DNA of 64,000 bases from Rhizobium subbaraonis (GTDB taxonomy: Bacteria; Pseudomonadota; Alphaproteobacteria; Rhizobiales; Rhizobiaceae), in assembly GCF_900220975.1 (NCBI RefSeq), contig NZ_OBQD01000007.1:1-64000 (forward strand), written 5' to 3'. Of this stretch, positions 20,065 through 25,303 are shown piece by piece (positions within the stretch are counted from its first letter, which is position 1; each line of letters begins with the position of its first letter). The notes below the pieces were generated by a model that worked only from the letters and a program-made list of their open reading frames with translations, did not search any database and was not told where the DNA came from. Position numbers and translations under genes: made by a program.

Positions 20065-20865
20065 ATGGCCACATTTCACGTGATGTCGGACGCGCAACAC
20101 AGGGTCGCCCATCCACAGGTGCGCAAAATTACCGTGGGCGAAGTCTGGGACGCCTTTCTCCTGGGCATCGACGATTTCCGGGAGCAGCCATCGCATTACG
20201 CCTTTCTCTGCCTGCTGTTTCCGCTGTCCGGTGTCATCCTGATGATCTGGAGCTCCGGCGCCAATCTGATGCCGATCATGTTCCCGCTGACGGCAGGCTT
20301 CGCGCTGCTGGGTCCGTTGCTTGCACTCGGCCTCTATGAAATCAGCCGGCGCCGCGAGGCCGGGCTCGATACCTCCTGGTATCATGCCTTCGAGGTTCGC
20401 CGTTCGCCCGCCCTGCCCGCCATCCTTGCCGTCGGCGCCATGCTCGTGGTCCTGTTCATCGCATGGATCCTTGCTGCCGACCGGCTCTATGCAAGCCTGT
20501 TCGGTACCGAGCAGCCGCAGTCTCTTTCCATGTTCCTGTCGCAGGTTTTCGGCACGGCCGCTGGCTGGCAGATGATCATTCTCGGCCACCTGATCGGCTT
20601 CTGCTTCGCCGCCGTCGTGCTGGCAACGACCGTGATCGCGTTTCCGCTTCTGCTCGATCGGGATGTCGGCGCAGTTTCCGCCGTCGAGACGTCGCTGCGC
20701 GCCACGATGATGAACCCGATTCCGGTCGCGTTCTGGGGCCTGATCGTCGCCGCCTGCCTGATGCTCGGCTCCATCCCCGTCTTCGCCGGGCTTGCGGTGA
20801 TGATGCCTATCCTCGGCCATGCCACCTGGCATCTCTACCGCAAGCTGATCGTCGCCGAGAAATGA
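20065..20865 (+). CDS. DUF2189 family integral membrane protein
   Basis: 266 residues from ATG at 20065, with AAGGAGGA about 10 bp upstream. A soluble N-terminal stretch of about 45 residues is followed by six hydrophobic segments arranged in three pairs. The pattern (YAFLCLLFPLSG, FPLTAGFALLGPL, PVFAGLAVMMPILGHATWHLY) fits the DUF2189 family of inner-membrane proteins of unknown function in proteobacteria, sometimes near cytochrome or stress genes. Nothing nearby suggests a partner. No promoter motif is clear. Confidence 0.8.
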   Translation: MATFHVMSDAQHRVAHPQVRKITVGEVWDAFLLGIDDFREQPSHYAFLCLLFPLSGVILMIWSSGANLMPIMFPLTAGFALLGPLLALGLYEISRRREAGLDTSWYHAFEVRRSPALPAILAVGAMLVVLFIAWILAADRLYASLFGTEQPQSLSMFLSQVFGTAAGWQMIILGHLIGFCFAAVVLATTVIAFPLLLDRDVGAVSAVETSLRATMMNPIPVAFWGLIVAACLMLGSIPVFAGLAVMMPILGHATWHLYRKLIVAEK

Positions 20866-21158
20866 CCGGACGGGTCCCGCGCACCATCAGGTCGCGCGGG
20901 GCGGCCGGCCGGTCCTGTCGGATAGACGTGTTGGAGGGTCAAGTGCTGGCGGTCGCCCGCGGTTCGCAATCCGCTGGCCGAATGTTAGACACGGACGCGC
21001 GGCGCAACCTTCGAGTGCGCCGCGGCGGCGTGGCGTGTCGACGCGAGCGCGGGTCGAAGCAAGCACGGGCTCGCCGGCATCGGCAGCGCCGTCCACCAGG
21101 CAATACATTTCTAACAACGTCCAGCGACGCTGCCGAAAAACACCGCAAAATTCAACCT
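20866..21158. other. Intergenic stretch, no gene seen
   Basis: About 290 bp of high GC sequence between the DUF2189 gene and the microprotein gene. Frames are open by composition only and lack credible starts. Nothing further recognised. Confidence 0.4.
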
Positions 21159-21260
21159 TCAGGCTTTCGTCTGCCCCCAAAGGCTTGCCAGGATCAATGT
21201 GGCGATCGCTCCCAGGATGAACGCGTCGAACCAGGCGAAATGATATACGAACGTTGCCAT
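21159..21260 (-). CDS. 33-residue membrane microprotein, predicted general-stress gene
   Basis: ATG at 21260 follows GGGAGGATAGTGTG, an excellent ribosome binding site at the right distance; TGA ends at 21159. The peptide starts MATFVYHFAWFDAF, has one hydrophobic segment (about residues 9-28, FILGAIATLILASLW) and ends GQTKA, so a single-pass inner-membrane peptide is predicted. An EcfG-type promoter lies 23 bp upstream with no other gene between. The gene is too short for normal gene calling. Not recognised as CydX, KdpF or another known small subunit. It could act as a stress-responsive regulator or subunit of a membrane complex; this is inference. Confidence 0.7.
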   Translation of the reverse strand: MATFVYHFAWFDAFILGAIATLILASLWGQTKA

Positions 21261-21282
21261 CACACTATCCTCCCGATCGTGA

Positions 21283-21307
21283 AACGACTACGCCGAAATC
21301 ATGTTCC
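21283..21307 (-). promoter_or_regulatory. EcfG-type (RpoE2/sigma-EcfG) promoter for the 33-residue gene
   Basis: On the minus strand GGAAC (21307-21303) is followed after exactly 16 nt by CGTT (21286-21283). This matches the alphaproteobacterial general-stress consensus GGAAC-N16/17-CGTT. The start codon is 22 nt further on, leaving a short leader with the ribosome binding site. Confidence 0.75.
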
Positions 21308-21424
21308 CTTTCCGCCAAGATTGCAATCTTGTTCTGATGGGTATCATTGCTTGCGCCACCTGACGTACACGCAGCGCATGTCGATCAGGCCTTTCCTGTT
21401 CAATCATCAGTTATGCGGGCCGAC

Positions 21425-21772
21425 CTAACCGGCCTCAACCGGCGCAGCCGGGGTGGCTGCGGCTGTCGCTGGCCCGATCGATTTCACCGAGCCGCTGCTG
21501 TCGATGACGCAGGTGAACTTGCTGCCGGCTGCATCGAGATCAACACGGTAGTTCGTCGCGTCCAACTGGCTTGAGCTGGTCGGCAGGATCCTGCTGCTGT
21601 CGACGCCGGACGGAACCGCCGCAGCGGTGGCGCACATCAGCTGCAAATCCGCGGGCGCCGTCCCGAGGCTGGTCCGCGCCATGTCCTGCGGCGCCGGCGA
21701 CGACTGGCAGCCGGCCACCATTCCTGCTGCGGCCAGCGTCAGCCAGCCGAATGCTATCCCCCGTGCATCCAT
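21425..21772 (-). CDS. Small lipoprotein of unknown function
   Basis: 115 residues from ATG at 21772 (GAGGAT upstream). A short signal with the lipobox VAGC puts the acylated Cys at residue 22. The mature part has two further Cys (LMCATA and FTCVID) that could form a disulfide, and a YRVDL..GSKFTCVID strand pattern typical of small periplasmic beta-domains. It ends with a low-complexity Ala/Pro tail. It lies downstream of the L,D-transpeptidase gene on the same strand with a 77-bp gap. A cell-envelope role is likely; nothing more can be said. Confidence 0.7.
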   Translation of the reverse strand: MDARGIAFGWLTLAAAGMVAGCQSSPAPQDMARTSLGTAPADLQLMCATAAAVPSGVDSSRILPTSSSQLDATNYRVDLDAAGSKFTCVIDSSGSVKSIGPATAAATPAAPVEAG

Positions 21773-21849
21773 TCCAGACACATCCTCTCTTTCGGCCCTC
21801 GCGGCCGGTTGCGTCCTGCCGTCGTCATTTTCACTTTTGTGCCATCGCC

Positions 21850-22536
21850 TCACACGCCCTTGTAAAGGGCCGCCCCCTGCATCAGCACGATCACCTTCGC
21901 ACCGACGTCGACGCGATCGTAGAGGTCGATGACATCCTCGTTGTTCAGGCGAATGCAGCCGGACGAAACGTCCAGCCCGATCGTCCAGGGCTCGATCGTG
22001 CCGTGGATGCGGTAGATCGTGTCGCTGTCGCCGACGAACAGATACATAGCCCGCGGTCCGAGGGGATTGTCCGGTCGGCCGCCCGGCATGCCGGCGGCCC
22101 ACTTCGCCGCATGGGGATCGCGCGCCACCATCTCCGGCGGCGGCGTCCAGGTCGGGTTCTCCGCCTTGCGGCCGACACGAACCATGCCGGCCCAGCCAAA
22201 GCCTTCGCGCCCGACGCCGATCCCGTAGCGGATCGCCTGCCCGCCCGGCTGCACCAAATAGAGAAAATGCTGGTTGCCGTCGATGATGATGGTGCCCGGC
22301 GCTTCGGCGGTCCTGAACGGAACGATCTGCCGCTGGAAGGCTTCGGGCAGTTGCTTGTTGCGGGCGTAGAGCTGCCGGGCCTTCTTCTTGTCGTAGTTGA
22401 CCCATTTGCCCGTCTTGGAATCGTAGATCTGCGTTTGCGCCAGCGCCATGAGCGGAGCCAGCGCAATGCCGGCCGCTACCAGCCATCCGAGGCGGCCGAG
22501 CCGGCTCGTGCTTCTCTTTTCCCGAACAGCATTCAT
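21850..22536 (-). CDS. L,D-transpeptidase (YkuD domain)
   Basis: 228 residues. The start ATG at 22536 overlaps the stop of the binding-protein gene (ATGA). Signal peptide or anchor about 12-33, then the YkuD domain: GTIIIDGNQHFLYL, IGVGREGFGWAG, and the catalytic motif HGTIEPWTIG..VSSGCIRL with active-site Cys in SSGC. Such enzymes form 3-3 peptidoglycan crosslinks or attach outer-membrane proteins to peptidoglycan, a prominent activity in Rhizobiaceae. Complete and probably active in the periplasm. Confidence 0.92.
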   Translation of the reverse strand: MNAVREKRSTSRLGRLGWLVAAGIALAPLMALAQTQIYDSKTGKWVNYDKKKARQLYARNKQLPEAFQRQIVPFRTAEAPGTIIIDGNQHFLYLVQPGGQAIRYGIGVGREGFGWAGMVRVGRKAENPTWTPPPEMVARDPHAAKWAAGMPGGRPDNPLGPRAMYLFVGDSDTIYRIHGTIEPWTIGLDVSSGCIRLNNEDVIDLYDRVDVGAKVIVLMQGAALYKGV

Positions 22537-24068: not shown

Positions 24069-25142
24069 TCAGATCAGTATTACGCCCAACTGAGCCTTGA
24101 CCGACGATATAGGATTTCCGCCAGTGATGCCAAGATTTCCTGCACCGCCCGATTGCGAGCCTGCAAACAGCAGCGCCACCGGAACGCCCTGGCCATCGAC
24201 GATCAGAGAACCACTGTCGCCGGGCGCGGAAAACGCGCGAGCGGGACTGTTGTTCATTTCGAACGTGATCTGGCCGTCGAAACGCGCAAGCCCGATCCCC
24301 ATGTTGACGACATAGTTGTTCACGTTGACCGCCCGCACCTTGCCGGCCGTATGCCTCGTTGTCCGCCCGGTCTTGAACACCGGCATGCCCGGAAACGCCT
24401 GCACGACACCCGTCGGCTGCAGCGTCAACACCTGGACCGGAGGCGTACGGCTATCGTAGATGCCGCGCGTGTCCATGCCTCGCCCGTGGTCGCTCAACTC
24501 TGCGAACGCGGCATCCACGGCATTCGGCAAGCCGCCGAACTGTATCGGGACGAAGCGTGTCAGATTGCCAACCACATCGTTCACCCGGTGCCCCGCGTCG
24601 CCTGCCGCCTGCTGGATGACGGGCGTGCCTATCGGCACCTGGTTCACATCGGCCAGCACGTGGTTGTTTGAGAGAATACCCGCCTTGTCGCCTTGAGCGT
24701 CCCGGCAGAAGCAGCCAAGGGTGCCACTGTAGTTCACCGTTGCCGGCGATGTGCTGCATCCGATGCGGAGCGGCTGGTTCCGGGTCTGCGTCCACAGCGG
24801 GACTTGCCGGCCGATGTAGATGATCTCCGCCTCGCGCCGCGAGAGGGCTCGGATCTCGTCGACCACCGAACTGTTCATCAGCAGGTGGTTTTGAACGAGC
24901 ACGGCCAGTTGCGCTTCCTCGTCCCCGGGTCCCTCCGCGACCCCGAGCGCAATATCTTCGGCGATACGCCGGCGGGCTCTGGCCAGCGAGCGACGGCGGG
25001 CTTGCTCCTCGTCCATGAGGACCGGATCGACAAAGGTGGAAGCCACCGGCGCCTCGCCGACAGCGGCCATCGGCATCTCTTCAAATTTGAAGATCTTGCG
25101 GAAGACCTCTCCCTGTAATTCCAATGCGGACTGCAGTCTCAC
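24069..25142 (-). CDS. Trypsin-fold serine protease, Nal1-like
   Basis: 357 residues from GTG at 25142, chosen for GGAGG 8 bp upstream. A charged helical N-terminal region (1-120) without signal peptide precedes the protease domain: GTLGCFCRD, ILSNNHVLAD (His161), VDAAFAEL (Asp210) and APGDSGSLI (Ser310) give a complete triad. The GTPVIQQ..GD stretch after the His is typical of this family. It appears cytosolic. With the 77-residue downstream gene it forms a two-gene unit. Natural substrates are unknown. Confidence 0.78.
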   Translation of the reverse strand: MRLQSALELQGEVFRKIFKFEEMPMAAVGEAPVASTFVDPVLMDEEQARRRSLARARRRIAEDIALGVAEGPGDEEAQLAVLVQNHLLMNSSVVDEIRALSRREAEIIYIGRQVPLWTQTRNQPLRIGCSTSPATVNYSGTLGCFCRDAQGDKAGILSNNHVLADVNQVPIGTPVIQQAAGDAGHRVNDVVGNLTRFVPIQFGGLPNAVDAAFAELSDHGRGMDTRGIYDSRTPPVQVLTLQPTGVVQAFPGMPVFKTGRTTRHTAGKVRAVNVNNYVVNMGIGLARFDGQITFEMNNSPARAFSAPGDSGSLIVDGQGVPVALLFAGSQSGGAGNLGITGGNPISSVKAQLGVILI

Positions 25143-25303
25143 GGCACGCCCTCCATCGGTCAGATACAACCAAAGGTAAAATAGCAGAAACAATGCCCGC
25201 AGGGAATGTTCTGTCGAAAGGCGGCGCCTGCATGTACGCCACGCAGGATAAACGGCCCGAGAGGCCCGTGTTAAACCCTAACAATCACGCTCAACGAAAA
25301 CAT

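What the first reader, a model, noticed from the sequence alone, without database searches (positions are those of the whole stretch)
21159..21307. Unannotated 33-residue membrane microprotein under a perfect EcfG-type promoter
Directly visible: ATG with an ideal ribosome binding site (GGGAGGA), one hydrophobic helix, and upstream GGAAC-N16-CGTT with a short leader. Established: GGAAC-N16/17-CGTT is the promoter used by EcfG/RpoE2 in the alphaproteobacterial general stress response. The gene is too short for usual gene finders and may be a new member of that regulon, perhaps a small subunit or regulator of a membrane complex.
Basis: partly seen in the sequence, partly recalled or inferred. Interest (0 to 1): 0.75.

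Follow-up and report, generated by a model that had tools for sequence, protein, structure and literature searches.

The report
Overlooked 33-residue membrane protein in rhizobia
A tiny, unannotated membrane protein gene is real and has been kept by natural selection in a family of soil and plant-associated bacteria, and in the genome studied it sits under what looks like a stress-response switch overlapping a second, always-on type of switch.

Summary
Window 21159-21260 (-) encodes MATFVYHFAWFDAFILGAIATLILASLWGQTKA, with GGGAGGA 7 nt before the ATG and an exact GGAAC-N16-CGTT upstream. The gene is conserved: 7 of 7 held genomes of its genus (Mycoplana), 21 of 21 of the Shinella-type genus g115 and 26 of 26 of genus g143. 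I accept 49 of 394 sampled family genomes, in 13 genera. It shows purifying selection (median dN/dS 0.07-0.29 in five groups). In 17 of 25 loci it lies between ilvC and a PLP aminotransferase. No convincing Pfam, NCBIfam or PDB match. The helix has one conserved face carrying an invariant Asp. The EcfG reading is only partly supported: the exact box occurs in 28 of 84 distinct upstream regions, 5 of 13 genera, and 3 of 7 Mycoplana. A sigma70-like TTG-N17-YANNNT is present in 65 of 84, including all 28. Best reading: a new family of single-pass membrane microproteins, driven in this lineage by overlapping housekeeping and EcfG-type promoters, probably docking on a larger membrane protein. Regulation and docking are inferred; partner and function are unknown.

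The parts
21159..21260 (-). microprotein CDS, 33 codons plus stop: MATFVYHFAWFDAFILGAIATLILASLWGQTKA
   Evidence: translation; orthologues in 7/7, 21/21 and 26/26 genomes of three genera; dN/dS well below 1
21268..21274 (-). ribosome binding site GGGAGGA, 7 nt before the ATG
   Evidence: sequence; GGAGG within 20 nt of the start in 84 of 84 distinct family members
21303..21307 (-). EcfG-type -35 element GGAAC
   Evidence: exact box in 28 of 84 distinct upstream regions
21283..21286 (-). EcfG-type -10 element CGTT, 16 nt downstream of GGAAC
   Evidence: same N16 form in 10 of 10 NepR loci fetched
21321..21326 (-). sigma70-like -35 element TTGCAA
   Evidence: TTG-N17-YANNNT in 7 of 7 Mycoplana upstream regions; only 4 of 6 letters of the E. 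coli hexamer, and not reported by the consensus scan
21298..21303 (-). sigma70-like -10 element CATGAT, 17 nt from TTGCAA, sharing its first C with the end of GGAAC
   Evidence: weak match to the E. coli consensus

Best explanation
This is a gene for a single-pass inner-membrane microprotein of a family that I did not find in Pfam or NCBIfam. SHOWN by computation: the frame is conserved and under purifying selection; the predicted product is one hydrophobic helix; the most conserved residues F8, F11, D12, I15, I19, L22 and S26 lie on one helix face. INFERRED: it is its own transcription unit, and two overlapping promoters drive it in this lineage: a housekeeping sigma70-like one (TTGCAA-N17-CATGAT; start near 21291; leader about 30 nt) giving a basal level, and an EcfG one (GGAAC-N16-CGTT; start near 21277; leader about 17 nt) raising expression in general stress. 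INFERRED: the peptide inserts as one transmembrane helix, and its conserved face, with the Asp buried, packs against a helix of a larger membrane protein (or itself), tuning or stabilising that protein. The partner is unknown; no constant neighbour gene points to it.
For: Conservation: 7/7 Mycoplana, 21/21 genus g115, 26/26 genus g143, 49 accepted of 394 family genomes in 13 genera. Selection: median dN/dS 0.29, 0.12, 0.13, 0.14, 0.07 in five groups holding 64 of the 84 distinct sequences. Helix: AlphaFold2 on 6 Mycoplana sequences, mean pLDDT 91, helix 2-32; conservation over positions 4-27 peaks at 100 degrees per residue, permutation p 0.002. Kept although the neighbours change. EcfG box: exact in 28 of 84 upstream regions, 5 of 13 genera; form equal to R. 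etli EcfG1 (PMC3892343 passage); exact N16 site in 10 of 10 NepR loci, 0 for the reversed control; in 20 Shinella-type upstream regions the nine EcfG columns and nine sigma70 columns are each more conserved than random columns (p 0.0017 and 0.004).
Against: The exact EcfG box is missing in 56 of 84 upstream regions and in 4 of 7 Mycoplana (one of them GGATC). Genome-wide the motif is no commoner than its reversed control. The sigma70-like element was noticed by eye before it was counted, is missing in 19 of 84 regions (all 18 from g19, g30, g46, g111, g124 and g146, and one of g143), and falls below the E. coli consensus threshold; in Shinella-type sequences its TTG is also the arm of a conserved inverted repeat, and the stretch -100 to -71 is as conserved as 0.80 against 0.73 for the rest, so conservation there need not mean a promoter. 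A9 is nearly as conserved (59 of 65) but lies off the conserved face. End charges are mixed, so topology is uncertain. No terminator-like hairpin was found in 20860-21450. No transcript, protein or partner was tested.
Confidence: 0.45

Rival explanations
1. The microprotein is real, but only a housekeeping sigma70-type promoter drives it; GGAAC ahead of the -10 and CGTT in the leader are incidental or serve something else (for example the leader).
For: TTG-N17-YANNNT is found in 65 of 84 upstream regions, including all 28 with the EcfG box and 7 of 7 Mycoplana against 3 of 7 for EcfG. CGTT stays in regions that lack GGAAC (six of seven g134 rows; 4 of 4 EcfG-lacking Mycoplana). The motif is not enriched genome-wide.
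Against: GGAA and CGTT are both conserved in Shinella-type sequences where neighbouring columns vary (p 0.0037 without the shared C), and a sigma70 promoter needs neither. Exact spacing N16/17 recurs in five genera.
Confidence: 0.33
2. A small hydrophobic toxin of a type I toxin-antitoxin pair.
For: Size and single hydrophobic helix are typical of such toxins (general knowledge, not from a call).
Against: One copy in the own genome, kept in 54 of 54 genomes of three genera, invariant polar Asp on a conserved face, no Rfam match on either strand at 20800-21900, no confirmed relative in viral contigs. No antisense RNA search beyond Rfam was made.
Confidence: 0.06
3. A small subunit of a terminal oxidase or other respiratory complex, like CydX of cytochrome bd.
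For: Similar size, one helix, F-A-W near the N-terminus (resemblance to CydX is recalled, not tested by alignment).
Against: None of the families listed for the 23 members at E<=1 in Pfam or NCBIfam is a CydX family, no PDB match to the profile, and no oxidase gene among the neighbours tested or recognised (the neighbours were read by eye, not searched against a library).
Confidence: 0.08
4. A leader (attenuation) peptide rich in Ile/Leu/Val for the downstream aminotransferase.
For: In 13 of the 25 loci the gene lies about 80-400 nt upstream of the PLP aminotransferase on the same strand, often with ilvC on the other side.
Against: In the window the aminotransferase is 4.7 kb away with an opposite-strand gene between; in the g111 locus examined it is 4.5 kb away and in the two g30 loci it is not present. 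Conservation is of a helix face and an Asp.
Confidence: 0.03

Closest known systems
EcfG/RpoE2-type promoters of the alphaproteobacterial general stress response (R. etli EcfG1: GGAAC-N16-CGTT, PMC3892343 passage)
   Same: Exact elements and spacing; same N16 form near the NepR gene in 10 of 10 loci of the genus.
   Different: Overlaps a sigma70-like site; not kept across the gene family (28 of 84); dependence untested.
CydX and similar accessory single-helix subunits
   Same: About 30-40 residues, one transmembrane helix, aromatic N-terminal part (recalled).
   Different: No family match, no oxidase neighbour recognised, invariant Asp inside the helix.
Small membrane proteins found by Ribo-seq in S. 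meliloti (SEP4, SEP6, SEP13, SEP16, and annotated SEP20; PMC10117765 passages)
   Same: Single-helix small proteins of Rhizobiaceae.
   Different: The main-text passages I saw give no sequence or place that identifies this gene; supplementary tables could not be read, so identity with a listed sORF is open.

Membership tests
EcfG/RpoE2-dependent promoter | GGAAC-N16/17-CGTT at a suitable distance from the start | tested here: met
   exact, N16, GGAAC begins 47 nt before the ATG
EcfG/RpoE2-dependent promoter | an EcfG-type general stress system in the same genome | tested here: met
   NepR (PF18557) over the cut-off in 7 of 7 genus genomes, two copies each; EcfG and PhyR themselves were not searched
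EcfG/RpoE2-dependent promoter | box conserved in orthologues | tested here: inconclusive
   28 of 84 distinct upstream regions, 5 of 13 genera, 3 of 7 Mycoplana
EcfG/RpoE2-dependent promoter | transcription depends on EcfG | not testable with these tools
   needs 5' RACE or RNA-seq with a mutant
sigma70-type promoter | -35 and -10 hexamers near the consensus, 16-18 nt apart | tested here: inconclusive
   TTGCAA-N17-CATGAT, 8 of 12 letters; the E. coli consensus scan (9 of 12) reported none; pattern present in 7 of 7 Mycoplana
CydX (cytochrome bd small subunit) | match to a CydX-type profile | tested here: not met
   no such family among those listed for 23 members in Pfam or NCBIfam at E<=1
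CydX (cytochrome bd small subunit) | encoded with cydAB | tested here: inconclusive
   window neighbours are ilvC, LDT, OpuAC, DUF2189 and others; neighbours in other loci were only read by eye
type I toxin-antitoxin toxin | paired antisense RNA | tested here: inconclusive
   no Rfam match; no de novo search

The most novel reading that the evidence does not exclude
A previously unnamed Rhizobiaceae family of stress-tuned membrane microproteins that dock through a fixed helix face with a buried Asp onto a conserved membrane machine, with lineages repeatedly gaining or losing an EcfG box laid over the same housekeeping promoter: a natural series for studying how genes enter and leave a general stress regulon.
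Probability: 0.3. Interest if true: 0.7.

Novelty: new member of a known kind. Interest (0 to 1): 0.5.

Why it matters
It adds a conserved protein family, apparently overlooked by annotation, to well-studied rhizobia, S. meliloti included, and a compact case (one gene, an EcfG box present or absent over a shared promoter region) for asking how stress-regulon membership evolves. The conserved helix face makes its partner a tractable target.

Tried and rejected
Leader peptide, type I toxin and CydX-type subunit were considered and are listed as rivals. Phage origin: 83 stretches of viral contigs matched a peptide pattern, none was confirmed. RNA families: none at 20800-21900. Consensus promoter/terminator scan: nothing in 20860-21450. 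A constant neighbour as partner: none; the block ilvC - gene - PLP aminotransferase is complete in 17 of 25 loci (16, L183 with the position), and broken or cut off in 8. ilvC tree of 17 rows to decide whether the EcfG box is ancestral: too poorly resolved (10 of 14 inner branches open). Naming genera g143 and g111 by plasmid matches: inconclusive. g46 is called Sinorhizobium because the peptide of one member differs by one residue from that of S. meliloti CP090106; g115 is called Shinella because of Shinella sp. PSBB067. Full-text searches for family peptide strings: 3 irrelevant papers and 0 papers.

Rows dropped or chosen: upstream regions were de-duplicated by gene plus 60 nt, giving 81, plus 3 divergent members placed by hand (L171, L181, L183); genus labels were assigned by hand. 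Script 41 by itself picked wrong frames for those three loci (scores 10-15); their positions come. The footprint test used 20 Shinella-type rows (19 of 21 of g115, plus G730) and left out the divergent L094 and L095. dN/dS used codons 2-28 of 64 of the 84 sequences in five groups, left out L095 and L050 and the smaller genera, and dropped identical pairs and pairs with saturated or tiny dS. Of 51 matches I discarded two lying in long frames (G267, G166). In one search all 65 distinct proteins were anchored on the Asp. The helix-face pattern and the promoter elements tested were noticed by eye first, so their p-values are not those of blind tests.

Full report
OBSERVATION. The - strand of the window carries, from 21260 to 21159, an ATG-started frame of 33 codons. 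GGGAGGA stands 7 nt before the ATG, and GGAAC (21307-21303), 16 nt, CGTT (21286-21283) stands upstream. Over the whole 6.58-Mb genome the pattern GGAAC-N16/17-CGTT is no commoner (136) than its reversed control (137). In 20000 dinucleotide shuffles of the 90-nt upstream region it appeared 17 times.

IS IT A GENE? Yes. The peptide matches once in its own genome and in 7 of 7 held genomes of its genus. Profile searches found it in 21 of 21 genomes of genus g115, called Shinella from Shinella sp. PSBB067, in 26 of 26 of genus g143, and in 51 of 394 family genomes at E<=0.005, of which I accept 49 in 13 genera. The other 343 sampled family genomes gave no match at that threshold. In 397 genomes drawn from the order, the only strong match outside the family is G730; seven further ones have E 0.0046-0.0096 and lie in frames of 183-783 residues. 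In 289 genomes drawn from the class, only the own genome matched at E<=0.001. No confirmed relative was found in viral contigs. Median dN/dS is 0.29 (Mycoplana), 0.12 (g115), 0.13 (g143a), 0.14 (g134) and 0.07 (g111). All 84 distinct members have GGAGG within 20 nt of the start. In S. meliloti CP090106 the orthologue carries no feature in the available gene table; that table is stated to be incomplete.

CONTEXT. In 17 of 25 loci the gene lies between ilvC and the PLP aminotransferase, sometimes with the lipoprotein-LDT-OpuAC block in between. In the two g30 loci neither neighbour is present; in the g111, g10 and one g46 locus one of them is missing. I infer a stand-alone gene without a constant operon partner; no terminator-like hairpin was found in the window region to prove it.

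PROTEIN. AlphaFold2 gives one helix, residues 2-32, mean pLDDT 91. In 65 distinct proteins D12 is invariant (rows were anchored on it, and each row has it), and F8, F11, I15, I19, L22 and S26 are kept in 58-64 of 65. Conservation has its peak at 100 degrees per residue (permutation p 0.002), and these residues lie within about 53 degrees of one face; A9 (59 of 65) is an exception on another face. A conserved face in a membrane helix suggests packing against another helix; this is inference. No convincing family match: best E for a single member 0.039 in NCBIfam and 0.093 in Pfam, and no PDB sequence at E<=10.

PROMOTER. The exact EcfG form was found in 28 of 84 distinct upstream regions: 3 of 7 Mycoplana, 19 of 21 g115, 3 of 3 in a g143 sub-group, 1 of 1 g12, 1 of 1 g97, and G730. 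It is absent from the regions examined of g10 (2), g111 (7), g134 (7), g143a (23), g30 (4), Sinorhizobium g46 (4) and g19 (1); g146 and g124 (1 each) have GGAAC-N16-GGTT and -TGTT. GGAAC-N16-CGTT is the form reported for R. etli EcfG1 (PMC3892343, passage). As a positive control, an exact N16 site lies within the 3.1-kb stretch around the NepR gene in 10 of 10 NepR loci fetched (of 14 matches), with 0 for the reversed pattern; which gene each site precedes was not worked out. A sigma70-like TTGNNN-N17-YANNNT is found in 65 of 84 regions, in all 28 with the EcfG box, and in 7 of 7 Mycoplana. In g143a it lies about 16 nt nearer the start and is probably a different arrangement; it is missing in 19 regions, among them all of g19, g30, g46, g111, g124 and g146. 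In shuffles of seven upstream regions such a site appeared at the same distance in 18-84 of 3000. In 20 Shinella-type regions both sets of columns are more conserved than random ones (p 0.0017 and 0.004), but the TTG there is also part of a conserved inverted repeat. By the E. coli consensus the sigma70-like site is too weak to be reported; the S. meliloti sigma70 -10 region is described as poorly conserved (PMC3616915, passage).

VERDICT. The gene and its hydrophobic helix are secure. The EcfG promoter is credible for this lineage but is not a family trait, and it overlaps a more widely found housekeeping-type site. Function is unknown; docking on a larger membrane protein through the conserved face is the best-supported guess.

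Noticed in passing
window 21316-21331 (-): Perfect 16-bp palindrome CAAGATTGCAATCTTG centred on the sigma70-like -35; shortened in L002 and not seen in the other Mycoplana upstream regions. Shinella-type upstream regions have a conserved GCAAG-N7-CTTGC ending in the same place. Possible operators.
   Followed up: partly
L037, L008, L038, L044-L050 upstream regions: GGAAC is replaced by GGCGC in three lineages (one g115 species, g10, g134; one g134 row has AGCGC), while the sigma70-like site stays. The repeated same change is unexplained.
   Followed up: no
G730, locus L186: A genome placed in another family (86% complete, 4% contamination) carries a Shinella-like copy with Shinella-like upstream region and neighbours; probably contamination.
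   Followed up: partly
CP090106.1: Record titled S. meliloti plasmid pSymB is 3.72 Mb and holds ilvC, rpsU and cold-shock genes, so it may be the chromosome mislabelled.
   Followed up: no
window 24069-25193 (-): Trypsin-like serine protease candidate with weak Pfam matches (best E 1.9e-5, below the curated cut-offs), between ilvC and OpuAC; a relative was found in 1 of 25 related loci.
   Followed up: no
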